Origin: Desulfitibacter sp. BRH_c19
GTDB taxonomy: Bacteria > Bacillota > DSM-16504 > Desulfitibacterales > Desulfitibacteraceae
DNA length: 64,000 bases
Assembly: GCA_001515945.1 (NCBI GenBank)
Contig: LOER01000046.1
Location: forward strand, 1-64,000
Direction of reading: 5' to 3'
A model generated the notes under the pieces. That model saw nothing but the letters and a program-made list of their open reading frames with translations. It was not told the origin of the DNA and ran no database searches. Positions 22,719 to 45,666 of the stretch are shown in pieces. How positions within the stretch are numbered: the stretch's first letter is position 1; the number at the start of each line of letters is the position of its first letter. The translations under genes were made by a program, and so were the position numbers.

Positions 22719-23744
22719 CTATTTAAACTGTTCTAAAAATCTAATGTCATTATCAAAAAATAATCGCAAATCATTAATGCCATATTTTAACATAGCTATT
22801 CTCTCTACACCCATACCAAAGGCAAATCCTCTTACCTCTTCAGGGTCATAGCCTGACATCTCCAATACTCTAGGATGCACCATACCACTACCTAAAATCT
22901 CCAGCCAACCAGTACCTGAACATACTCTGCAGCCAGAACCATGACACATTACACATGAGATATCAACTTCAGCACTTGGTTCGGTAAATGGAAAATAACT
23001 TGGTCTTAAACGGATCTCCACCCCTTCGCCGAACATTGCCTTTGCAAACGCCAATAGCGTCCCTTTTAAATCTCCTAAAGTAACCTCTCTATCAATCAAC
23101 AATCCTTCAACCTGGTGAAACATAGGTGAGTGGGTTGCGTCATCATCTCTTCTAAATACCTTTCCTGGTGCAATTATTCTTACAGGTAACTTTGGAGCAA
23201 TTTTTTCCATTACTCTTACCTGGACTGGCGACGTATGGGTTCTTAATAATACTTCTGATGTAATATAAAAAGAATCTTGCATATCTCTTGCTGGATGGTC
23301 TTTTGGTAAATTTAAGGCTTCAAAATTGTAATAATCGCTTTCTATTTCAGGTCCTTCGGCTATTGAATACCCTAAACCTTGAAAAATATCTTGGATTTCA
23401 TTTAAAACTTGACTAATTGGATGAATTCTTCCTACTCCTATTTTGTATCCAGGAAGTGTTACATCCTGCTGTTCCTGCTTCAATTTAGCTTCAGTCTCTT
23501 TAACTTTTAAGTCCTCAAGTTTTTGATCTAGTAATTTTTGAATACTATCTCTAACTTCATTGGCAATTTTTCCAACTTTAGGCCTTTCCTCTGAGGTGAG
23601 TTGCCCCATACCTCTTAATAATGATGTTAGTTCTCCTTTTTTGCCTAGGAATTTGATTTTTATTCCTTCTAAGTTAGACATATCTTGACAGTCTGTTATT
23701 TCACTATAAGCCTGATCTCTAATTATATTTAGCTTATCTATCAT
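22719..23744 (-). CDS. pheS: Phenylalanyl-tRNA synthetase alpha subunit
   Basis: A 341-residue class II synthetase subunit. An N-terminal coiled coil (about 1-90) is followed by the catalytic core with [14 protein letters not shown], motif 2 [18 protein letters not shown], and motif 3 [17 protein letters not shown]. It is the aminoacylating subunit of PheRS. The start follows GGGAGG by eleven bases, and the gene is preceded by a T-box leader with a Phe specifier. Confidence 0.97.
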
Positions 23745-23789: not shown

Positions 23790-24045
23790 CCGAAATGTCC
23801 CCAAAATAAAAATGCTCTCTTCCCCAAGGGACGAAAGCATATTCGTGGTACCACCCTATTTAATCTATGAACAAATGAATTCATAAGATTATCTCATGAT
23901 TTGATAACGGTGTATTCACCGGCCTTCCCTACTGAGGTTTCAAAAAGGCAGCTCTTGGGTGAATTTCATTATTTTTATCTCTGGTAAAGCTTTCAATCAA
24001 GACTCTACCTCCCTGAAGAGATTTGAAAATAATTACTTATCCCAT
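23790..24045 (-). promoter_or_regulatory. T-box riboswitch, Phe specifier, controlling pheS-pheT
   Basis: The minus strand has the T-box core AGGGTGGTACCACG (about 23842-23855). It is followed by a terminator (ATGCTTTCGTCCC pairing with GGGGAAGAGAGCAT, then TTTTTATTTT). Upstream is stem I starting GGGATAAGTA, and the specifier loop GAAATTCACC with the codon TTC (23961-23963), which matches Phe. Uncharged tRNA-Phe should pair with the specifier and T-box and allow read-through into pheS. The specifier assignment is by sequence context and fits the downstream gene. Confidence 0.92.
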
Positions 24046-24229
24046 TCATAGCTATTTCTACCCTGATATTCTACTGTACAATCAACTTTTTGTACATAAT
24101 ATAGGCTCTTATTGATCCAGTTTTTTCAAAAATCCTCCAAAAAATTTCAGCAGGTAGAAACACAGGGCATACACCAACCTTTCCAGTTTTGGATTACAGT
24201 AGTATTATATCATATTTTTAAAACCATAA

Positions 24230-33289: not shown

Positions 33290-35485
33290 TTATCCCCTCT
33301 CTATCATTTGTATAACTGAACCCTTACATGCAGCTGCACAAGTACCACAGCCCCCACATTTTTGCAAATCCACATGAAAAGTTTGATCCTCTCTGATAAT
33401 TGCTCCTCTAGGACAAGCTTCTACACATTCATCGCATTGAATACATACACCGCAATGCAGACAACGCTCATGTTCTTCAATAGCACTATTATGGTCTAGG
33501 GGAGAGCATTTATAAGGTTCTAGAGGAAAATTATTACTTTTTATATTAATACTATACTGATATTCAATACCCTGCAAATCTGCATGAATTTCATGTGCAC
33601 ATTTTTTTGCATAAGATATGTTTTCTGCAACAATCTTTAAGCCACTTACATCACCAACACAATAGATTTTTGAATTCTCTATTCTAGATCTTTTCTCAGA
33701 AACTGGTTTCATAAATCCTCTCGTATCAGTTTGCTCTTTTAAATCCTTTGGCAAAAAGTCCAAAACTGGTACCTCGCTTGTAAAGACGAGAATACTATTA
33801 GCAGTATAGTTCAAAATGTTTCCCATCTGATCCTTTGCCACTACACTTCCTTCTTGGGTGATCTCTTCTACAAAGACTGGATACTTAAAGTTTATTCCTT
33901 TTCCTCTTAATTTATTAATTTCCTCTTTATTTCCTGATGGAGTTTTAATATCTAGTACAGTTAGATTCTCTCCTTGAACACCCATTTCTATTGCTGCTTC
34001 TAGACCATCAATGGCTGCATCACCAGCTCCTAAAACTATTACTTTTTCCCCTAGTTTAGGTGCTTTTCCTCTATTATAGTCTTTGAGAAAATCTATGCCA
34101 GGTGTTGCTACCTCAATACCTTGAATGGGAGGAAACATTCCTTTATGTGCACCCACCGCTATTACAACACTATCATGCTTATCAGCTATTTCTTGGAATT
34201 TTTTTGCATCTACTGGTGAATTAACTTCTACCTCCACACCCATTTCTAGAATTCTCTTTAGATCATGTTCTAATTCCTCAAGAGGTAATCTTTGCCTTGA
34301 GATTACTTGAAACATTTTTCCCCCTAGTTTCTCATCACCTTCATATATTTTTACTTTATAGCCTAAACGGGCCAAGAAATAGGCTGTTGTGAGACCAGCA
34401 GGTCCTCCTCCAATTATGCCAATAGATCCTTTAAATTTTCCTATTGTGCCAGATACCGCATTACTTTTATAAGTCTTTGCCAGTTTACTACTTTGTATTG
34501 GAAAATCCAAGTAGCCTCTTGTACATCCATCCATACATAGGTGCGGACATATATGCCCACAGCAACTATTTCTAAATGGAGTATATTCATCTAACAATTC
34601 TATTGCTTTTTTCGTATCATTATTTCTGATATATTTTAGAAATCTTCCTGTAGGAATACCAACAGGACAGGAGCTTTCACATGGGGATTTTCTTTCTTTA
34701 TGAACTGGCTGTAAACCTGTATTAACAGGATAAGCAGGAAAATAGAAACTGCTAAAGGGCCTGTTACCTATAGGTGTAATTTTGATAATATTTCTCTTAA
34801 GCAATGATTCAGGTTCAAAACTAAACTCATCACAAAACTCTTCAACTAATGGGATAATTCTTTCCATGTCTTCCTTGGATATTTCAGAAAAAGCAGCTCC
34901 AATCCCTAGTTGATAATCCTCGATCTGACTGCCAAAAATAAAAATTTCTCCTCCATGAATACCTGTTGCAAGAGTATTACTAGCTTTTCCTACTACTCCA
35001 CTATTAATATTATGCTTATTCAGAACAATAATAGTTCCTCCAGCCATATATTCACCAAGAAAATCTCCTGTTGTACCACCTATCACTAAAGTAGGCACTT
35101 TTTCCTTGTAAGACTTCATATGGATACCTACTCTATAACCAACGTCATCTCTTACAAAGATTTTTCCTCCCCGCATTCCATAGGCAAGGGCATCGCCTGC
35201 TAAACCATGAACAGCAATCTTACCACTATCCATTGTATTGCCTATAGAATTTTGGGCATGACCTTTTACTACTATTTTGCTTCCTTCTAAAGCAAAACCA
35301 AGATCTTCCCCAGGAATACCCTCAATTTCTATTACCGCTCCAGCATCAGCTATTCCTGTACCAATATATCGTTGACCTAAAACATTTCGTAGGAGAATGT
35401 TTTTGTGGCCTTCCTTTAAAGCAACTCTTATTTTACGGTTAAGGTCTTTATAATAAAGCTCTTTAGCATCTATAACATATGACAT
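33290..35485 (-). CDS. Glutamate synthase: GXGXG domain fused to small subunit and ferredoxin
   Basis: A 731-residue fusion. Residues about 1-230 are the GXGXG beta-helix domain normally at the C-terminus of GltB (repeats such as GGKIFVRDDVGYRVG, GGTTGDFLGEYMAGG, GGEIFIFG). Residues about 255-640 are the GltA/DPD-type FAD-NAD(P)H part with a Cys-rich CCGHICPHLCMDGCTRG, the FAD motif GGGPAGLTTAYFLARLG and NAD motif GAGDAAIDG. The end has two 4Fe-4S motifs (CIQCDECVEACPRG, CGGCGTCAAACKG). It feeds electrons to the FMN subunit. The ATG at 35485 follows AGAGGTGAT. Second-last enzyme set before dapF. Confidence 0.87.
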   Translation of the reverse strand: MSYVIDAKELYYKDLNRKIRVALKEGHKNILLRNVLGQRYIGTGIADAGAVIEIEGIPGEDLGFALEGSKIVVKGHAQNSIGNTMDSGKIAVHGLAGDALAYGMRGGKIFVRDDVGYRVGIHMKSYKEKVPTLVIGGTTGDFLGEYMAGGTIIVLNKHNINSGVVGKASNTLATGIHGGEIFIFGSQIEDYQLGIGAAFSEISKEDMERIIPLVEEFCDEFSFEPESLLKRNIIKITPIGNRPFSSFYFPAYPVNTGLQPVHKERKSPCESSCPVGIPTGRFLKYIRNNDTKKAIELLDEYTPFRNSCCGHICPHLCMDGCTRGYLDFPIQSSKLAKTYKSNAVSGTIGKFKGSIGIIGGGPAGLTTAYFLARLGYKVKIYEGDEKLGGKMFQVISRQRLPLEELEHDLKRILEMGVEVEVNSPVDAKKFQEIADKHDSVVIAVGAHKGMFPPIQGIEVATPGIDFLKDYNRGKAPKLGEKVIVLGAGDAAIDGLEAAIEMGVQGENLTVLDIKTPSGNKEEINKLRGKGINFKYPVFVEEITQEGSVVAKDQMGNILNYTANSILVFTSEVPVLDFLPKDLKEQTDTRGFMKPVSEKRSRIENSKIYCVGDVSGLKIVAENISYAKKCAHEIHADLQGIEYQYSINIKSNNFPLEPYKCSPLDHNSAIEEHERCLHCGVCIQCDECVEACPRGAIIREDQTFHVDLQKCGGCGTCAAACKGSVIQMIERG

Positions 35486-35495
35486 GGTATCACCT

Positions 35496-36995
35496 CTATT
35501 CTCCCGCATGTTGAATACCTAATACTTCTAATTCCTTTGCATTTAAACCGAGACCTCTTAATAGCAATCTATTACCCCTAAAGCTCCCGATATCGTATAT
35601 TCCATTAAGACCCATAATTTCTTGCATTTCATGATGCCAACCCTCAATAAGATTGGCAAGTCTTTCTTCAGCCCAATCTACATCTAAACGTTTCATAAGA
35701 TCTTCTTCATTGGTAGTTAATCCCCAAGGACATTTTCCAGAATGGCACCTTTGACACATGTGACATCCACACGCAATTAATGCGGCAGTTCCAATAGCTA
35801 CAGCATCTGCTCCTAAAGCTATACATTTCATCACATCAGCACTATTTCTTACTCCACCAGCCGCAATTATAGAAGCTTTGTGCCTGATACCTTCTTTTCG
35901 CAGTCTTTCATCAACCACAGCCAATGCCAGCTCTATAGGTATCCCTACATTGTCTCTTACAATTGAAGGCGTAGCCCCTGAGCCACCCCTAAACCCATCT
36001 ATATAGATCATATCTGCACCTGCATGGACAACTCCTGTAGCAATGGCTGCAACATTATGAACTGCTGCAATCTTTACACATACCGGTTTATAATCATTTG
36101 CTTCTTTAATGGCATAAATCAAAAGTCTAAGATCCTCAATAGAATAAATATCGTGTTGTGGTGCAGGTGATATAGCATCGCTATGGAGGGGTATCATTCT
36201 TGTTTCGGAAATTCCAGGTAAAACCTTTTCTCCTGGCAAATGCCCACCTATCCCAGGCTTTGCTCCCTGCCCAATCTTTATCTGATATGCTGAGCCAACT
36301 CTGAGATACTCGGGACTTACTCCAAAACGTCCTGACGCTATCTGTAATACAGCTCGTGGTGCATAGTCATATAAATCTCTATGGAGTCCACCCTCTCCTG
36401 AATACCACAACATCTGCTTTTTTGTAGCAACTCTTGCTAGTGCTTTTTGTAGATTTAAACTGATGCTACCATAAGACATGGGGCCAAAGACTAGTGGAAG
36501 GTCAATCTCCAACAGTTTATTAGCCTTATGGTCTTTTCCATAAGAAACTTCCTTTCTGCCTAGATAAGTGAATGTTTCCATGGGTTCTCGCTGTGGATCT
36601 ATAGATGGATTAGTTACCTGACAGGCATTAAAGGTAATTCTATCAAAATACATGGGGAGATTATTGTCAGATCCCATGCCAGTTAAAACAACTGCTCCTG
36701 ATGATGCCTGTAAGTGAATCCTATTAACATTTCTATAGTCCCATGATTTATTAACTCTAAGTGGTGATGGTCTATCAACTATTGTGATAGCCCCTCTAGG
36801 ACAAGTCAGTTCACAACGATGACATGCCCCGCAGGATTTTTGGTTGGCTACTGGTAGCTTCTTACCATCTTTGAGATTAATTTTTATCTCATTGAATGAA
36901 CACTCTTTAGCACACTCAGCACATCCGTCACACAATTCATAATTAAACTCCGGCTTATATAAGGATTTTAGACCAATATCGTAAAACTTCTGCAT
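35496..36995 (-). CDS. gltB: Glutamate synthase FMN-binding (central/synthase) subunit
   Basis: A 499-residue archaeal-type GltB core. Two 4Fe-4S motifs come first (CDGCAECAKECSFNEI, CGACHRCELTCPRG), then the FMN/2-oxoglutarate barrel with FGPMSYGSISL, WYSGEGGLHRDLYD, IGQGAKPGIGGHLPG, GGSGATPSIVRDN, and a CGCHMCQRCHSGKCPWGL cluster for the 3Fe-4S centre. It condenses ammonia with 2-oxoglutarate to glutamate. The ATG at 36995 is eight bases after GGGAG. It follows the amidotransferase gene by 45 bases and precedes the GXGXG-small subunit fusion by ten. Confidence 0.92.
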   Translation of the reverse strand: MQKFYDIGLKSLYKPEFNYELCDGCAECAKECSFNEIKINLKDGKKLPVANQKSCGACHRCELTCPRGAITIVDRPSPLRVNKSWDYRNVNRIHLQASSGAVVLTGMGSDNNLPMYFDRITFNACQVTNPSIDPQREPMETFTYLGRKEVSYGKDHKANKLLEIDLPLVFGPMSYGSISLNLQKALARVATKKQMLWYSGEGGLHRDLYDYAPRAVLQIASGRFGVSPEYLRVGSAYQIKIGQGAKPGIGGHLPGEKVLPGISETRMIPLHSDAISPAPQHDIYSIEDLRLLIYAIKEANDYKPVCVKIAAVHNVAAIATGVVHAGADMIYIDGFRGGSGATPSIVRDNVGIPIELALAVVDERLRKEGIRHKASIIAAGGVRNSADVMKCIALGADAVAIGTAALIACGCHMCQRCHSGKCPWGLTTNEEDLMKRLDVDWAEERLANLIEGWHHEMQEIMGLNGIYDIGSFRGNRLLLRGLGLNAKELEVLGIQHAGE

Positions 36996-37040
36996 TTTAA
37001 CCACTCCCTGTTTTATTGCTTTTCTACCTGTTAAGTCAGA

Positions 37041-38138
37041 TCAGGAAGCATGTTTTTGGAGCATGCTTTCCTCCTTTTGGTAGGATGCTATTACAGGCTC
37101 TCCTGCTCTTGGAGTGAATATTTCATTGATACTGTTTTCCATCTCAAAAAGAGCCGATAATTCACTACTGAAATAATTGTAACCTTTATTAACTCCCACA
37201 GACATGGGACGAAGCTTTGTATTGTCTGTCAGACTAAAGAGTCCATTATCATGACCACATAAAATAGCAAATGGCCCATTTAACATGGCTGATTCATATA
37301 CTGTCTTTAATCCTATTAACCTTGCCTTTTCTGAAGTATTTAGCATTCTTTTAATCTCAGACCAATATGGTGGAGCTAAGACCTTAGTAGCATCTTCAAT
37401 GCTTAGACCGTGCTGGCGAATTAATAAATCTAGTAAATATGCTACAACTTCACTATCTGTTTGAAGATTGCATTGGTAGTCAAAGGTCTCCAAATATCTT
37501 CTATTTATTCCATAGGAGGATATTTCTCCATTATGAACTATTGACCATCCTAGAAGACTCAGGGGATGGGCACCACCCCACCAGCCTGGGGTATTTGTTG
37601 GAAATCTATTATGTGCTATCCAGCAGTATCCTTCATATTCATCTAAACGATAGAAATCATATATTTCTTCAGGAGTACCAACACCTTTGAATACACCCAT
37701 GTTTTTGCCACTAGAGAAAACATAGGCACCATCAATTGACGAATTAATTTGCATTACATGGGAGATCACATAATCATCAAATCTTACTCTTTCTTCTTCA
37801 TCTACCATAGTGAATGGAATTTGTTCGACCTTTGGCTCAAGGAAAAATCTATAGATAATTGGATAGTCTTTAATTTTCTTACCCCAAACCTCAACCTTTT
37901 CCTTATGATGTACATTAAAGTAATTACTTAAATATGAGTAAACCTCTTCCTGTTGTCTGTTTTCGTTAAAAGATACTTGGAATGCATAAAGATCTTTGTA
38001 CTCCGGAAAAATTCCATAAGCCCCATACCCAGCACCTAGTCCATTTCCCCTATCATTTTGCAACACTATTGCTTTACGTATTCTTTTCCCATTTTCTCTA
38101 ACTTTCTCCTGGCTTATAAGTCCTGCTATACCACACAT
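37041..38138 (-). CDS. Glutamate synthase glutamine amidotransferase subunit (class II)
   Basis: A 365-residue class II (Ntn) amidotransferase. Cys2 follows the initiator Met (MCGIAGL), as needed for the catalytic N-terminal Cys. Other marks are WIAHNRFPTNTPGWWGGAHPL and WSIVHNGEISSYG, with the NGE motif. It hydrolyses glutamine and passes ammonia to the FMN subunit. In most bacteria this domain is the N-terminus of one large GltB; here it is a separate gene, as in archaea and Thermotogae. First gene of the operon, after a leader with two terminators. Confidence 0.9.
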   Translation of the reverse strand: MCGIAGLISQEKVRENGKRIRKAIVLQNDRGNGLGAGYGAYGIFPEYKDLYAFQVSFNENRQQEEVYSYLSNYFNVHHKEKVEVWGKKIKDYPIIYRFFLEPKVEQIPFTMVDEEERVRFDDYVISHVMQINSSIDGAYVFSSGKNMGVFKGVGTPEEIYDFYRLDEYEGYCWIAHNRFPTNTPGWWGGAHPLSLLGWSIVHNGEISSYGINRRYLETFDYQCNLQTDSEVVAYLLDLLIRQHGLSIEDATKVLAPPYWSEIKRMLNTSEKARLIGLKTVYESAMLNGPFAILCGHDNGLFSLTDNTKLRPMSVGVNKGYNYFSSELSALFEMENSINEIFTPRAGEPVIASYQKEESMLQKHAS

Positions 38139-38212
38139 CTATATCATCCTCCCTTTTTACTTAAAAAATTAGCCTAGTAAATGCAGTTTATTAATCATCT
38201 TAAGTTGAAATA

Positions 38213-38324
38213 AAAAAGCCTCTTTACACCCAATTCCAAGATTGGGCATAAAGACGCCATTGCCTTTACATTAAAAAACGTCTTTGCACCAGAGTAATTC
38301 TGGTAACAAAGACGCCATTGCCTT
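38213..38324 (-). promoter_or_regulatory. ANTAR-type antitermination leader of the glutamate synthase operon (tandem)
   Basis: The minus-strand leader has two similar units. Each has a short hairpin with hexaloop AATGGC (AAGGC/GTCTT at 38309-38324; AAAGGC/GTCTTT at 38250-38267). Its 3' arm is also the 5' arm of an intrinsic terminator: CGTCTTTG..CAAAGACG then TTTTTT at 38273-38314, and a CCCAAT/ATTGGG-topped stem then TTTTTT at 38213-38255. The hairpin and the terminator are mutually exclusive. Loops with A at position 1 and G at position 4 are the known signature of ANTAR protein targets, and two ANTAR genes lie 4 kb away. The layout is tandem units rather than the usual close pair. Confidence 0.72.
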
Positions 38325-40928: not shown

Positions 40929-42260
40929 TTAGAAGCGTGATAAATATTGCTCAACTTCCCATGGTGTAACCTGAATTTTATAGGATTCCCACTCTTTAAC
41001 TTTTGCTTCTTTAAATTTAGTAACTACATGCTCACCTAAAGCTTCTTTTACTACTTGATCTTTCTCAAGCTCAGCTACTGCATCCATAATAGTTGGTGGT
41101 AAACTTTCAATTCCTCTAGCATCCTTTTCTTCATCGGTCATTGTATAGATATTCACATCTGTTGGAGCTGCTGGATCTAATCCTCGATTAATCCCGTCTA
41201 AACCAGCTTTTAACATTACTGCTAAAGATAAATATGGGTTACAAGCTGGATCTGGGTTCCTCATTTCTACTCTTGTTGATAGCCCTCTTTTAGCAGGAAT
41301 TCTAATTAACGGGCTTCTATTTCTATGGGACCATGCAATATATATAGGTGCTTCATAACCAGGAACTAGCCTCTTATATGAGTTAATGGTAGGGTTTGTA
41401 ATAGCACATATGGCTTTTGCGTGATGAAGTAATCCTCCAATATAGTTATATGCTATTTGACTTAAGCCATAATTTCTTGATGGATCATCAAAAGCATTTG
41501 TTCCATCTTTAAACAAGGATTGGTTTGTGTGCATGCCAGAACCATTGATGCCAACTATTGGCTTTGGCATAAATGTAGCATGTAAACCATGTTGCTGTGC
41601 AACTGTTCTTACTACAAACTTAAATGTTACTATCATATCGGCTGTTGTAACTGCATCAGCATATTTGAAGTCAATTTCATGCTGTCCTGGAGCTACCTCA
41701 TGGTGTGAAGCCTCAATTTCAAAACCCATTTGTTGCAACATAACACACATGTCTCTTCTAGCATTTTCACCTAAATCTACAGGAGCTAGATCAAAATACC
41801 CTGCATTATCATGAGTTTCCAAAGTAGGATGACCTTTCTCATCAGTATGGAATAAGAAGAATTCACATTCTGGACCAACATACATTGTATAACCTAGTTT
41901 TTCCGCTTCGGCTACTGCTCTTTTAAGAGTTACGCGTGGACATCCTTCAAAAGGTGTTCCATCAGGATTATATATATCACAAATTAATCTCGCTACCCTA
42001 CCATTTTGTGGTCTCCAAGGGAAAACAACAAATGTGTCAGGGTCTGGTCTTAAGTACATATCAGATTCTTCTATACGAACAAAACCATCTACTGAAGAAC
42101 CGTCAAACATCAATTCGTCATCTAAGGCCTTTTCTAGCTGTTCAATTGTAATTGCAACATTTTTAAGTACTCCTGTAATGTCGGAAAACTGTAGTCGAAT
42201 AAATTTTACGTCATTCTCTTTTGCTTTCTCCATAATTTCTTTTTTTCTTAACTCATCCAT
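40929..42260 (-). CDS. glnA: Glutamine synthetase, type I
   Basis: A 443-residue GSI-alpha enzyme. All main motifs are standard: [10 protein letters not shown] (Asp of the subunit-shared site), [21 protein letters not shown] (two metal Glu), [10 protein letters not shown] (ATP/glutamate His), VPGYEAP (flap Glu), [13 protein letters not shown], and [13 protein letters not shown]. It makes glutamine from glutamate, ammonia and ATP and supplies the glutamate synthase operon. It has its own promoter and a leader with dual hexaloop hairpins and a terminator. ATG start after AGGAGG. Confidence 0.96.
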
Positions 42261-42287: not shown

Positions 42288-42372
42288 AAAAAATGCCCTC
42301 AGATGCACATACCTAAAGTATGTTACACATGAGAGCGTCTTTGCTCTTTGAATAATAGGCTCCATCGCCTAT
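42288..42372 (-). promoter_or_regulatory. ANTAR-type dual-hairpin antiterminator in front of glnA
   Basis: On the minus strand P1 is ATAGGC-GATGGA-GCCTAT (42355-42372) and P2 is AGAGC-AAAGAC-GCTCT (42332-42347), both with six-base loops and a seven-base linker. The 3' arm of P2 is also the 5' arm of a terminator (GCTCTCA with TGAGGGC, topped by CATAC/GTATG, then ATTTTTT, 42288-42336). This is the layout known for ANTAR targets such as the eut leaders: protein binding holds P1-P2 and blocks the terminator. The P2 loop fits A1/G4; the P1 loop keeps G4 only. Confidence 0.82.
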
Positions 42373-42390: not shown

Positions 42391-42419
42391 ACTATATCAC
42401 TTTTCTTTTAACTTGACAA
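42391..42419 (-). promoter_or_regulatory. Promoter of glnA
   Basis: On the minus strand TTGTCA (42414-42419) and TATAGT (42391-42396) are spaced by 17 bases. Transcription would start near 42384, about 12 bases before the P1 hairpin. Confidence 0.65.
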
Positions 42420-42433
42420 TATCCTTAATAAAA

Positions 42434-43006
42434 TTATTTGAATAATTGATAGCTATTTATAATGGCTTCTGCAACTGCTTTCATAGACATTGATTGATTC
42501 ATGCTTTGTTTTTGTATCTTTTTAAATGCTTCATCTTCCGAAATACTAAGGGTTTTCATTAGTATTCCCTTTGCCTTTTCAACAGTTTTCCTTGCTTCCA
42601 TTTTCATTTTCAATGTATCTATTTCAGACTTAAGCAGTTTTATTTTGTGAGCTACAGCTAGGACAGACTCTACCACAGGTATAAGGTTATTTTCAGTAAT
42701 TGGTTTAACAACTATAGAATTGACCTGACCAGCCTTTGTAAGCTCAGAAAAATTAGTTTGCCACCCATTTACAAGCAGAACTACTGGGATGTCCTCTATT
42801 TCCATTATATTAATCATGTCCAAGGCAGAAAAACCTGGTAGAGAATAATCCATAATGGCCAACTGAAATCTTCTTTGTCTTACATCTCTTACTACCTGAA
42901 CGGCAGATGCAGCTCTTTCTGTTATTTGGTAACCATTTCTAGCCATTATTTTTTGAACTAATTGATGAAGCTTTTTATCTTCAGTAGCTAAATAAATGTT
43001 ATTCAT
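42434..43006 (-). CDS. ANTAR-domain response regulator (RNA-binding antiterminator) B
   Basis: A 190-residue protein: a receiver domain (about 1-120), a coiled-coil linker (HKIKLLKSEIDTLKMKMEARK) and a C-terminal ANTAR domain (VEKAKGILMKTLSISEDEAFKKIQK onward, split over residues 139-163). The receiver keeps an Asp in AIMDYSLPG and a Lys in VVKPI, so it could be phosphorylated. ANTAR proteins bind dual hexaloop hairpins and prevent termination. The ATG at 43006 follows GGGGGTGA by eight bases. It follows the second glnA by 20 bases and precedes the glnA leader that it may bind. Confidence 0.88.
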   Translation of the reverse strand: MNNIYLATEDKKLHQLVQKIMARNGYQITERAASAVQVVRDVRQRRFQLAIMDYSLPGFSALDMINIMEIEDIPVVLLVNGWQTNFSELTKAGQVNSIVVKPITENNLIPVVESVLAVAHKIKLLKSEIDTLKMKMEARKTVEKAKGILMKTLSISEDEAFKKIQKQSMNQSMSMKAVAEAIINSYQLFK

Positions 43007-43026
43007 CTCTGCTTTCACCCCCACCA

Positions 43027-44370
43027 TTACACGTGGATGAGATATTCATCTAACTCCCAAGGATGAATAAATGAGTTAAACTTCTCCCACTCTTTTCCCT
43101 TAGCATCTAGATATAATTTTACAAATTTTTCTCCTAATGTATCTTTCAATAGAGAATCGTTCCTTAATATTTGTAAAGCTCTATCTAGGTTACGAGGTAA
43201 AATACAATCTCTATGTTCCTCGAGTATATCTATATTACTGTAGAATTTAAAGTCTACATTTTCATTGGGCTCAGGTAGACTACTTTTTTCTGTATATTCT
43301 TTTATACCCATTAAACCAGCTCTAATGCTTGTGGCTAATACAGTATATGGATTACATGCAGGATCGGGACTCCTTAATTCAATGCGACAACCTGTATCTC
43401 TCTGGGAGGGTACTCTTACCATGGTATTCCTATTTGTTTGAGACCACCCCAAATAAAAAGGTGCAACGTAACTTGGTGACAAGCGTTTATAAGAATTAAT
43501 TATTGGATTTGCAATAGCAGTAATACCCCCAGCGTGTTCCAAAGTGCCTTTTATATACGCTAGTGCCTTTTGACTTAATTGCCACTTGGCATTATTATCA
43601 AAAAATATATTGTTTCCATTTTCGTATATTGAATAATGTAAGTGTAAAGCGGATCCGTTTGTATCAATAAGTGGTTTAGGCATAAAGGAAGCATGTAACC
43701 CATGTCTTTGGGCAATGGTTCTTACTACAAATTTAAACGTTGCTATTTTATCTGCAGCATCTATAGGGTCATCAGGTTTAAGTACTATCTCATTTTGCCC
43801 CGGAGAGTTTTCATGATGGGATGACCCTATTTCAAAATTCATTTCCTCAAGGGTAAGAACCATGTCTCTTCGTGCATTCTCACCTAAATCTACAGGACTT
43901 AAATCACAATAACTTGCTTGATCATGAGCTTTTATTGTTGGAGTACCATCAGCTGTTGTGTGAAATAAGAAAAACTCTATTTCAGATCCAATTTGGACAT
44001 CAAATCCCATTTGATAAGTATCCTTAACAACCTTTTTTAATATTGATCGAGAGCAAAATTCAAAAATACTGCCGTCTGGATTATAAACATCACACAGCAT
44101 CCTGGCAACGGCTCCCTCTCTGGGTCTCCATGGAAATATTACTAAACTATCTGGATCAGGAATTAGGACGATATCTGCCTCTCGGTTCTCAGTTATCCCA
44201 ATTACAGCAGATGAATCAAACCTTTTTTGTCCGCTTAAAACTTTCTCCAGTTCCTCAACTGTTACAGCAATATTCTTCAATCTACCGAAAACATCCGTAA
44301 ACTGAAGTCTGATAAACTTTATATTATTTTCTTTTACTTTCTCTAATACTTGATAGGAGTCATGCTTCAT
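43027..44370 (-). CDS. Glutamine synthetase paralogue with altered flap
   Basis: A 447-residue GSI homologue. Metal-site and ATP residues are kept ([41 protein letters not shown]). Two conserved blocks differ from the canonical copy at 40929-42260: the shared-site loop reads FDSSAVIG instead of FDGSSVDG, and the flap reads SPSYVAP instead of VPGYEAP, so the flap Glu (Glu304 of B. subtilis GS) is Val. The first Arg of the HRNRS motif is Thr. Activity or glutamine feedback is probably changed. It lies between two ANTAR genes. The ATG at 44370 follows GGGGTGA and begins three bases past the ANTAR A stop region. Confidence 0.9.
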   Translation of the reverse strand: MKHDSYQVLEKVKENNIKFIRLQFTDVFGRLKNIAVTVEELEKVLSGQKRFDSSAVIGITENREADIVLIPDPDSLVIFPWRPREGAVARMLCDVYNPDGSIFEFCSRSILKKVVKDTYQMGFDVQIGSEIEFFLFHTTADGTPTIKAHDQASYCDLSPVDLGENARRDMVLTLEEMNFEIGSSHHENSPGQNEIVLKPDDPIDAADKIATFKFVVRTIAQRHGLHASFMPKPLIDTNGSALHLHYSIYENGNNIFFDNNAKWQLSQKALAYIKGTLEHAGGITAIANPIINSYKRLSPSYVAPFYLGWSQTNRNTMVRVPSQRDTGCRIELRSPDPACNPYTVLATSIRAGLMGIKEYTEKSSLPEPNENVDFKFYSNIDILEEHRDCILPRNLDRALQILRNDSLLKDTLGEKFVKLYLDAKGKEWEKFNSFIHPWELDEYLIHV

Positions 44371-44375
44371 TATTT

Positions 44376-44948
44376 TCACCCCAATTTTTTTATAATGGCC
44401 TTTGCGACTCTCTGCATTGATAGGCATTGGTCCATGCTAATCTTTCTCATCATTTTATAAGCCTCATCCTCAGACAAACCCTTTCTCTGCATTAACATTC
44501 CCTTTGCCTTTTCTATTAAGACTCTACTTTCTATTTGTTTTTCGTACTCTTTTACTTTCTTTTCTAAATCATTTATTTGTTGAAACTTACTAATTGAAAA
44601 TTCTAAAATAGATATAAAATTATCCCTAGTAATAGGAGTAATGATATAGTTAAAAACGTCTGTCTTCATATATGAGGTAAGTTTACTGGTTTCCAATTGA
44701 TTTGCAATTAATATAATAGGTGCAACATTTTGCTCTGAGATATTTTTACACAATTCTATAATGTTATTTGTTTGTATTGTAGCGTTAATAATTATAATAT
44801 CAGGTCTTATGTTAATTACTGACTGTAATAAAGACCGAGCATTTTTAGGTTTAGCAACGACTAAATGACCTTCTAAAGTAATATATTCCTCAATAGAATA
44901 TGGAAAATTTATTTCATCGCCGCCAATTATGCACCTCAACTCATTCAT
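44376..44948 (-). CDS. ANTAR-domain regulator A with degenerate receiver
   Basis: A 190-residue protein of the same layout as ANTAR B: receiver-like domain, coiled coil (LEKKVKEYEKQIESR) and ANTAR domain (LIEKAKGMLMQRKGLSEDEA, then MDQCLSMQRVAKAI). The phospho-acceptor position reads IIIINATIQ instead of xxxxDxxMP, so the Asp is gone and phosphorylation is unlikely; control may come from ligand or protein contact. It is the first gene of the ANTAR A-GS paralogue-ANTAR B unit. Its own leader is only 64 bases and holds no hexaloop hairpin. Confidence 0.87.
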   Translation of the reverse strand: MNELRCIIGGDEINFPYSIEEYITLEGHLVVAKPKNARSLLQSVINIRPDIIIINATIQTNNIIELCKNISEQNVAPIILIANQLETSKLTSYMKTDVFNYIITPITRDNFISILEFSISKFQQINDLEKKVKEYEKQIESRVLIEKAKGMLMQRKGLSEDEAYKMMRKISMDQCLSMQRVAKAIIKKLG

Positions 44949-45012: not shown

Positions 45013-45666
45013 TCACACTTTAGTTTTCTCTAATTTCACTAAAGCTTCTATAGCAATCTGTCCTATTGTTAAGACATGCTTTTTTCCATCTATATATATT
45101 TCAATTAATTTATCATTTTTTACCATTGTCTGCAATATCGGTCCTGCCTTTTTTATACCGCTATTACCTAATGCCCTTGCTGCTAATCCTTTTATCTCAG
45201 GATTATCACAATGCAAAAACTCTATAATTTCATTTTCAAATTTTATAACCTCATTAGGTATTACTTCTCCGAACCTAGCAATTGCCCACAGCATCCCTTT
45301 CTGGAAAATCTTTTCGTCTATAGCTGCAGTAATCATTACTGGTGCTAGATATCCGAATAGCCCTGGTTGATTATATACAATCTCTCCAATAGCTTCAGGA
45401 GCGCTCCAATTGCTATTGCCTCCTTCTTCGTTCATCATCCAGATAAATCTTCTTAGAATTTCTCTGAAAAACTCCGTATCAGACTCTCCAAGCTCCTTGG
45501 CTAAATACCCAAAAGCATCAATACCATTCCATTTGTTACTAGCATTAGGTTCATACAAAACTGAATAGATATATTTTACAGCTCGTTTATTATTATTGAC
45601 CAATATAGCTAGTTCATGAAAATCTCTCTGTTCAACAAGATCTAATGTTCTTGCCTTAAGATTCAT
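45013..45666 (-). CDS. HEAT-repeat protein (DVU0298-like)
   Basis: A 217-residue all-helical protein with HEAT-like repeats (KGMLWAIARFG, IKGLAARALGNSG) and the NWSAPEAIGEIV segment that I associate with the DVU0298 family found in anaerobes. Function unknown; such repeats usually mediate protein contacts. It starts with ATG and lies 64 bases upstream of ANTAR A on the same strand, downstream of the histidine kinase gene. Confidence 0.6.
   Translation of the reverse strand: MNLKARTLDLVEQRDFHELAILVNNNKRAVKYIYSVLYEPNASNKWNGIDAFGYLAKELGESDTEFFREILRRFIWMMNEEGGNSNWSAPEAIGEIVYNQPGLFGYLAPVMITAAIDEKIFQKGMLWAIARFGEVIPNEVIKFENEIIEFLHCDNPEIKGLAARALGNSGIKKAGPILQTMVKNDKLIEIYIDGKKHVLTIGQIAIEALVKLEKTKV

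What the first reader, a model, noticed from the sequence alone, without database searches (positions are those of the whole stretch)
43027..44370. Glutamine synthetase paralogue with the flap glutamate replaced, encoded between two ANTAR regulators
Seen: the flap reads SPSYVAP where the canonical copy has VPGYEAP, the shared-site loop reads FDSSAVIG for FDGSSVDG, and an Arg in HRNRS is Thr, while metal ligands are kept. Known: in B. subtilis GS the flap Glu (Glu304) is key to glutamine feedback, and feedback-inhibited GS signals nitrogen state to regulators. Inference: this GS may be a sensor or a feedback-resistant enzyme that controls the neighbouring ANTAR proteins.
Basis: partly seen in the sequence, partly recalled or inferred. 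Interest (0 to 1): 0.7.

Follow-up and report, generated by a model that had tools for sequence, protein, structure and literature searches.

The report
Dead glutamine synthetase pairs with RNA antiterminator
A copy of the nitrogen-assimilating enzyme glutamine synthetase appears to have been turned into a nitrogen sensor: it has lost parts of its catalytic site, keeps a pocket known to bind 2-oxoglutarate, and is inherited together with an RNA-binding regulator whose apparent targets are the genes for the real glutamine synthetase, glutamate synthase and ammonium uptake.

Summary
One detail is meaningless: the Arg-to-Thr site is variable in ordinary GS and is Gln in B. subtilis. The real losses are flap Glu304, Arg62 and Ser56. 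GSx is not a local oddity. It belongs to one clade found across Peptococcaceae-like Bacillota, co-inherited with one ANTAR clade. In a 149-genome sample, 18 genomes carry it and 17 have an ANTAR gene immediately upstream. Two thirds of members have also lost metal ligands that ordinary GS never loses, and one genus keeps only a ~350-aa remnant without an active site, still beside its ANTAR. By contrast, the seven residues that bind 2-oxoglutarate in archaeal GS are invariant in all 39 GSx sequences and in the remnant. This genome has only two ANTAR proteins. Typical ANTAR hairpin leaders sit upstream of the canonical glnA and, outside the window, amtB-glnK, with related single-hairpin attenuators before glutamate synthase. 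Best reading: GSx is a non-biosynthetic, 2-oxoglutarate-sensing partner of ANTAR1, working like AmiC-AmiR or NasS-NasT but built from GS. Pairing and targets are well supported; ligand, contact and sign are inferred. I found no earlier description in the papers searched.

The parts
44376..44948 (-). ANTAR1: degenerate receiver plus ANTAR RNA-binding domain, co-inherited partner of GSx
   Evidence: Pfam ANTAR 5.9e-20 and Response_reg; phospho-acceptor Asp replaced by Asn and the conserved Lys by Thr; PDB relatives Rv1626, EutV-type, NasR, AmiR; member of the GSx-adjacent ANTAR clade, SH-aLRT 99
43027..44370 (-). GSx: glutamine synthetase paralogue, probable non-biosynthetic sensor; E304V, R62E, S56A; complete 2-oxoglutarate pocket motif F-R-A-R-R-R-S
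   Evidence: clade of GSx SH-aLRT 100, and 98 with functional columns removed
42434..43027 (-). ANTAR2: second ANTAR protein, receiver Asp and Lys kept; start codon overlaps the GSx stop (TAATG)
42391..42419 (-). Promoter-like site of the canonical glnA leader (TTGTCA-17-TATAGT with TG)
   Evidence: one of many consensus matches, but placed directly before the leader
42332..42371 (-). Dual-hexaloop ANTAR target: P1 ATAGGC(GATGGA)GCCTAT, P2 AGAGC(AAAGAC)GCTCT
   Evidence: covariance model hit E 5.5e-5 in the whole genome (this sequence was in the seed); conserved with changed pairs in G001 and G002
42288..42336 (-). Intrinsic terminator GCTCTCA...TGAGGGC-T6 that shares its 5' arm with P2, so the two are mutually exclusive
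   Evidence: fold and sequence
40929..42260 (-). GS1: canonical type I-alpha glutamine synthetase, ANTAR-controlled gene
   Evidence: TIGR00653 592.9 bits against cut-off 429; all catalytic residues present
38212..38324 (-). Leader of the glutamate synthase operon: two tandem single hairpins with AATGGC hexaloops, each sharing an arm with a terminator
   Evidence: only a weak hit to the dual-hairpin model (12.7 bits); conserved in G002
33290..38138 (-). Split glutamate synthase genes (amidotransferase 37041-38138, FMN domain 35496-37004, GXGXG/GltD-like 33290-35509), probable targets

Best explanation
GSx is a duplicated glutamine synthetase that became a metabolite sensor for an RNA antiterminator. 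Proposed working: (1) GSx and ANTAR1 are made from adjacent, translationally close genes and form a complex. (2) GSx keeps the intersubunit 2-oxoglutarate pocket of GS but has lost the flap Glu304 and the Arg62 glutamine lock. 2-oxoglutarate, which rises in nitrogen shortage, therefore changes its conformation or assembly without catalysis. (3) This frees or activates ANTAR1, whose receiver in this organism lacks the phospho-acceptor Asp. (4) ANTAR1, alone or with ANTAR2, binds hexaloop hairpins in the leaders of the canonical glnA and amtB-glnK, and probably those of the glutamate synthase operon, blocks the overlapping terminators, and switches on nitrogen assimilation. Shown by sequence: the paired clades, adjacency, decay of catalytic residues, intact pocket residues, leaders with overlapping terminators, and that this genome has only these two ANTAR proteins. 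Inferred: physical contact, the ligand, the sign of control, and which ANTAR binds which leader.
For: Pairing: GSx forms one clade (31 rows, SH-aLRT 100; 40 rows including the shrunken form, 98, with all functional columns removed). ANTARs next to GSx form one clade (34 rows, SH-aLRT 99). In 149 sampled genomes, 18 carry GSx and 17 have an ANTAR gene immediately upstream on the same strand. Distances of GSx and ANTAR1 correlate after controlling for canonical GS (partial r 0.59, 0 of 5000 permutations). Loss of catalysis: metal-ligand changes in 51 of 234 cells of GSx against 0 of 222 in canonical GS of the same loci; Glu304 lost in all 39. In one genus (L048, L152, L153) a ~350-aa remnant has lost the Asp50 loop, nearly all metal ligands and the flap, yet still follows an ANTAR gene. 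Ligand pocket: the seven residues matching the MtGS 2-oxoglutarate site (PMC10799026; register checked against 8ool) are unchanged in 273 of 273 GSx cells and 7 of 7 in the remnant, but deviate in 23 of 259 cells of canonical GS from the same loci. Of 198 positions that vary in those canonical GS, only 19 are invariant in GSx; these include A36 and R83 of the pocket, V89 (MtGS Val94) and several residues of the helix carrying R169/R170. Targets: the genome has exactly two ANTAR proteins. A covariance model of glnA-type leaders finds two significant sites in 3.85 Mb, glnA and amtB-glnK; amtB was not in the seed and is found again in G002. In other loci hits lie before canonical GS, ANTAR2-type and glutamate synthase genes, and none at E<0.01 before ANTAR1-GSx.
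Against: No physical, binding or expression data exist. The window's own GSx keeps all six metal ligands and the substrate arginines, so residual or altered activity is possible. The 2-oxoglutarate pocket is also complete in most canonical GS of this group (79 of 119), so its presence is ancestral; only its tighter retention is informative, and for the remnant alone the chance level is only about 3% because its whole N-terminal half is better kept. 14 of 30 GSx-linked ANTARs still have the receiver Asp. Two genomes keep an ANTAR1-type gene with no GSx beside it (L089, L097). 11 of 39 GSx keep Arg62. Correlated rates could come from lineage effects or hitch-hiking in one operon.
Confidence: 0.62

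Rival explanations
1. GSx is a regulatory partner of ANTAR1 but senses glutamine, glutamate or ATP in the old active site rather than 2-oxoglutarate.
For: The amino-acid and nucleotide-site residues R298, R316, G241 and E189 are kept in all full-length GSx, and R321 and R335 nearly so.
Against: Glu304 is lost in all and Arg62 in most, so the glutamine lock described in PMC9249791 cannot form. The remnant in genus g49 has lost the active site and keeps the ANTAR linkage.
Confidence: 0.17
2. GSx is a regulatory subunit that co-assembles with canonical GS1 in mixed dodecamers and changes its activity or feedback; the ANTAR linkage only reflects shared regulation.
For: 50% identity to GS1, conserved ring-forming N-domain, and the active site of GS is shared between subunits (PMC9249791).
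Against: It does not explain why GSx is linked specifically to the ANTAR1 clade, nor persistence of a remnant missing most of the catalytic domain features.
Confidence: 0.1
3. GSx is an active ligase with another amine or glutamate-like substrate, such as gamma-glutamyl-amine synthetases, or a feedback-resistant glutamine synthetase.
For: The window protein keeps all six metal ligands and the ATP and glutamate arginines; strong purifying selection.
Against: 26 of 39 family members lost at least one metal ligand. Curated models for gamma-glutamylputrescine synthetase and GSIII score far below cut-off (263 against 650; 305 against 470), and TIGR00653 falls just short (420.3 against 429.15). No amine-catabolism genes lie in the operon.
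Confidence: 0.08
4. GSx is a decaying duplicate without function, carried along in the operon.
For: Progressive loss of catalytic residues across the family and truncation in one genus.
Against: dN/dS about 0.06 between species of the genus, lower than most measurable neighbours and second to canonical GS; open frames in all genomes; 84 invariant positions and a fully invariant pocket across the clade.
Confidence: 0.03

Closest known systems
AmiC-AmiR (Pseudomonas aeruginosa) and NasS-NasT (Paracoccus denitrificans)
   Same: A ligand sensor encoded beside an ANTAR antiterminator with a receiver-like domain that need not be phosphorylated; targets are nitrogen genes with terminator leaders (PMC3369931, PMC3795266).
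   Different: Their sensors are derived from periplasmic-binding-type proteins and bind amides or nitrate; here the sensor is a glutamine synthetase homologue and the likely ligand is 2-oxoglutarate.
Feedback-inhibited GS with GlnR/TnrA (Bacillus and relatives)
   Same: A GS protein reports nitrogen state to a regulator encoded in the same operon (PMC9249791).
   Different: There an active GS signals glutamine excess through Glu304 and Arg62 to a DNA-binding MerR-type protein. Here the GS is a separate paralogue that lost both residues, and the regulator binds RNA.
2-oxoglutarate-activated GSI-alpha of methanogens (MtGS, M. mazei GlnA1)
   Same: Identical set of 2-oxoglutarate-binding residues at the subunit interface (PMC10799026, PMC11957540).
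   Different: Those are active enzymes switched on by 2-oxoglutarate; GSx lost the flap Glu and, in most lineages, metal ligands.
ANTAR RNA regulons of Desulfotomaculum (Ramesh et al. 2012)
   Same: Dual-hexaloop leaders before glutamate synthase, ammonium transporter and glutamine synthetase genes were predicted there (PMC3369931).
   Different: A text search of that paper finds no mention of glutamine synthetase as a sensor or of the GSx gene; the signal input was unknown.

Membership tests
Type I glutamine synthetase enzyme (GlnA) | Score above the curated TIGR00653 cut-off | tested here: not met
   420.3 bits against 429.15; canonical GS1 592.9
Type I glutamine synthetase enzyme (GlnA) | Flap Glu304 and Ser56 of the shared site | tested here: not met
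   Val and Ala in the window protein; Glu304 absent in 39 of 39 GSx, present in 120 of 120 canonical
Type I glutamine synthetase enzyme (GlnA) | Six metal ligands | tested here: met
   All kept in the window protein; lost in part in 26 of 39 members of its clade
Type I glutamine synthetase enzyme (GlnA) | Biosynthetic activity | not testable with these tools
   Needs enzyme assay
Feedback-inhibited GS signalling (GlnR/TnrA type) | Glu304-Arg62 glutamine lock | tested here: not met
   Val304 and Glu62
Ligand-sensor/ANTAR pair (AmiC-AmiR, NasS-NasT kind) | Sensor gene adjacent to and co-inherited with an ANTAR gene | tested here: met
   17 of 18 genomes; paired clades; partial r 0.59
Ligand-sensor/ANTAR pair (AmiC-AmiR, NasS-NasT kind) | ANTAR protein with a receiver not controlled by phosphorylation | tested here: inconclusive
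   Phospho-acceptor Asp lost in the window and in 16 of 30 GSx-linked ANTARs, kept in 14
Ligand-sensor/ANTAR pair (AmiC-AmiR, NasS-NasT kind) | Binding-protein-type sensor fold | tested here: not met
   GS fold by Pfam and PDB sequence comparison
Ligand-sensor/ANTAR pair (AmiC-AmiR, NasS-NasT kind) | Ligand-dependent release of the ANTAR protein | not testable with these tools
   Needs pull-down or gel filtration
2-oxoglutarate-responsive GSI-alpha | Residues Phe18, Arg20, Ala34, Arg88, Arg174, Arg175, Ser191 (MtGS) | tested here: met
   All present in GSx and invariant in the clade
2-oxoglutarate-responsive GSI-alpha | 2-oxoglutarate binding | not testable with these tools
   Needs calorimetry or structure
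ANTAR-controlled leader RNA | Two hexaloop hairpins (A1, G4) with P2 overlapping a terminator | tested here: met
   glnA leader (P1 loop has G1 in this species, A1 in G001 and G002) and amtB leader. The glutamate synthase leaders are single hairpins and meet this only in part

The most novel reading that the evidence does not exclude
A new class of 2-oxoglutarate receptor: a catalytically dead glutamine synthetase whose intersubunit 2-oxoglutarate pocket directly controls an RNA-binding antiterminator. It would run nitrogen assimilation in Peptococcaceae-like bacteria through a route separate from PII, NtrC and GlnR/TnrA.
Probability: 0.45. Interest if true: 0.9.

Novelty: new variant of a known kind. 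Interest (0 to 1): 0.78.

Why it matters
ANTAR antiterminators control nitrogen genes in many Clostridia-like bacteria, but their signal input is known in only a few cases. This work offers a concrete, testable input for a large group: a GS-derived sensor with a named ligand pocket. It would be a clear example of GS turned from enzyme into receptor, with intermediate stages still visible (all metal ligands kept; some lost; active site deleted). It would also add a third kind of sensor to the AmiC-AmiR and NasS-NasT logic. It warns against annotating these genes as glnA and counting them as biosynthetic isozymes.

Tried and rejected
Reading the 'HRNRS' Arg to Thr change as functional: rejected, the site is variable in ordinary GS.

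Glutamine-feedback sensor of the B. subtilis type: rejected as main model, both lock residues are lost.

Known gamma-glutamyl-amine ligases: rejected on curated cut-offs.

Rfam search for a described leader RNA at the GS genes: none at gathering score; only a T-box, a tRNA and an rRNA end.

A strict dual-hairpin scan of the window missed the glnA leader because its first loop begins with G in this species; comparison with G001 and G002 resolved it.

First DNA alignment of the leaders put P1 on P2 and was discarded; replaced by A3. Pair counts on A3 are partly circular because most rows were found by pairing.

Weak model hits in the genome at E 0.1-0.8: the two inspected lie in or at coding sequence and were dropped.

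One Syntrophomonadaceae GS without flap Glu (L108) falls outside the GSx clade and was left out.

Full report
OBSERVATION. The gene (here GSx) runs on the minus strand from 44370 to 43027; the + strand reading has stops throughout. The operon order is ANTAR1, GSx, ANTAR2, canonical GS1, lpdA, lipA, split glutamate synthase. ANTAR1 ends 5 nt before the GSx start and the GSx stop overlaps the ANTAR2 start (TAATG). In B. subtilis numbering GSx has E304V, R62E, S56A, G54S and keeps all six metal ligands and R298, R316, R321, R335.

A WIDESPREAD CLADE. The genome has three GS genes. GSx orthologues occur in the two other species of the genus (84%) with the same operon. A scan of named genomes and a 149-genome sample of the phylum show the same paralogue in Desulfoscipio, Desulfotruncus, Pelotomaculum, Desulfofundulus, Desulfotomaculum, Desulforudis-like, Thermincola-like and other lineages. 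It forms a single clade (SH-aLRT 100), which stands at 98 when the 2-oxoglutarate, flap, metal and substrate columns are all removed. The 39 sequences used below include three contigs held twice in different collections, so about 36 genomes.

LINKED TO ONE ANTAR CLADE. In the sample, 18 genomes carry GSx; 17 have an ANTAR gene immediately upstream on the same strand and the other has one 1.6 kb upstream. ANTARs beside GSx form one clade distinct from those beside canonical GS (SH-aLRT 99). Distances of the two proteins correlate beyond canonical GS (partial r 0.59, 0 of 5000 permutations). Exceptions: L089 (Desulfocucumis) and L097 keep the ANTAR without a GSx beside it.

CATALYSIS IS NOT WHAT IS KEPT. 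Outside the window's genus, metal ligands are replaced: E333 by Ile/Val/Thr, E132 by Gln, H245 by Asn/Lys/Tyr. In all, 51 of 234 cells deviate, against 0 of 222 in canonical GS of the same loci. In three species of one genus the protein is a ~350-aa remnant that lost the Asp50 loop, nearly all metal ligands and the flap, but still follows its ANTAR gene. Yet GSx is under purifying selection (dN/dS about 0.06, with dS near saturation).

WHAT IS KEPT. The 2-oxoglutarate site of Methanothermococcus GS is Phe18, Arg20, Arg88, Arg174, Arg175 and Ser191, with a small residue at 34; B. subtilis has Tyr20, Glu36 and no Arg88 (PMC10799026). M. mazei uses the equivalent residues (PMC11957540). Register was checked against the solved MtGS chain (query 1-89 to chain 15-110, which places GSx F19, R21, A35, R82 on F18, R20, A34, R88). 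All seven are unchanged in all 39 GSx and in the remnant. In canonical GS of the same loci 23 of 259 cells deviate, mainly at A36 and R83. Of 198 positions variable in those canonical GS, only 19 are invariant in GSx. They include A36, R83, P84 and V89 (equivalent to Val94, whose substitution blocks 2-oxoglutarate) and N167, M172, V173, T175, M179 on the helix that carries the two arginines. Constraint has moved from the active site to this pocket. The pocket is ancestral in this GS group, so this is evidence of retention, not of invention.

THE TARGETS. The genome encodes exactly two ANTAR proteins, ANTAR1 and ANTAR2. The canonical glnA leader has a promoter, two hexaloop hairpins, and a terminator sharing an arm with the second hairpin; it is conserved with changed base pairs in both sister species. 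The glutamate synthase leader has two tandem single hairpin-terminator modules of related sequence; these match the dual-hairpin model only weakly, so they are called probable targets. A covariance model built from 14 such leaders finds two significant sites in 3.85 Mb: glnA, and a leader 86 bases upstream of amtB-glnK that was not in the seed. The second is found again before amtB in G002. Elsewhere hits precede canonical GS, ANTAR2-type and glutamate synthase genes, never (E<0.01) ANTAR1-GSx. Nitrogen-gene ANTAR leaders of this kind were predicted before (PMC3369931); their signal was not known.

MECHANISM AND COMPARISON. In AmiC-AmiR and NasS-NasT, a ligand-free sensor holds the ANTAR protein and ligand releases it (PMC3369931, PMC3795266). 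GSx-ANTAR1 has the same genetic layout, and in this organism the receiver lacks its Asp and Lys. Since 2-oxoglutarate signals nitrogen shortage, the simplest model is that 2-oxoglutarate-bound GSx lets ANTAR1 read through into glnA, amtB-glnK and probably glutamate synthase. It works like those pairs but is not a member by sensor fold. It is also unlike B. subtilis GS-GlnR, because both residues of the glutamine lock are gone. Physical contact, ligand and direction remain untested.

VERDICT. Confidence: regulatory partner of ANTAR1 about 0.8; 2-oxoglutarate as ligand about 0.5; whole model 0.62.

Noticed in passing
L048:13063-14205, L152:9936-11078, L153:6861-8003: Shrunken GS-like proteins of ~350 aa in one genus, without an active site but with the 2-oxoglutarate residues, beside an ANTAR gene in three species.
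   Followed up: partly
L054:10289-11881, L040:10606-12186, L089:5440-7020 and others: A conserved ~530-aa protein (weakly like the FMN domain of glutamate synthase) often lies between GSx and the next ANTAR gene; its role is unknown.
   Followed up: no
L108:5736-7166: A Syntrophomonadaceae GS with Tyr in place of the flap Glu that is not in the GSx clade, followed directly by an ANTAR gene: possibly an independent origin of the same trick.
   Followed up: no
L089:4466-5062, L097:4771-5499: ANTAR1-type genes without a neighbouring GSx; either the sensor was lost or lies elsewhere in the genome.
   Followed up: partly
window 33290-38138: Glutamate synthase is split into separate amidotransferase, FMN and GXGXG genes, the last fused to a GltD/ferredoxin-like part.
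   Followed up: no
window 45013-45666: A DVU0298-family HEAT-like protein of unknown function is kept directly upstream of ANTAR1 in all three species of the genus.
   Followed up: no
window 23824-24058: T-box leader on the minus strand directly upstream of a phenylalanyl-tRNA synthetase alpha-like gene (22719-23744).
   Followed up: partly
G000:C16:54691-55995 (L002): A third, canonical GS gene elsewhere in the genome, 58% identical to GS1.
   Followed up: no
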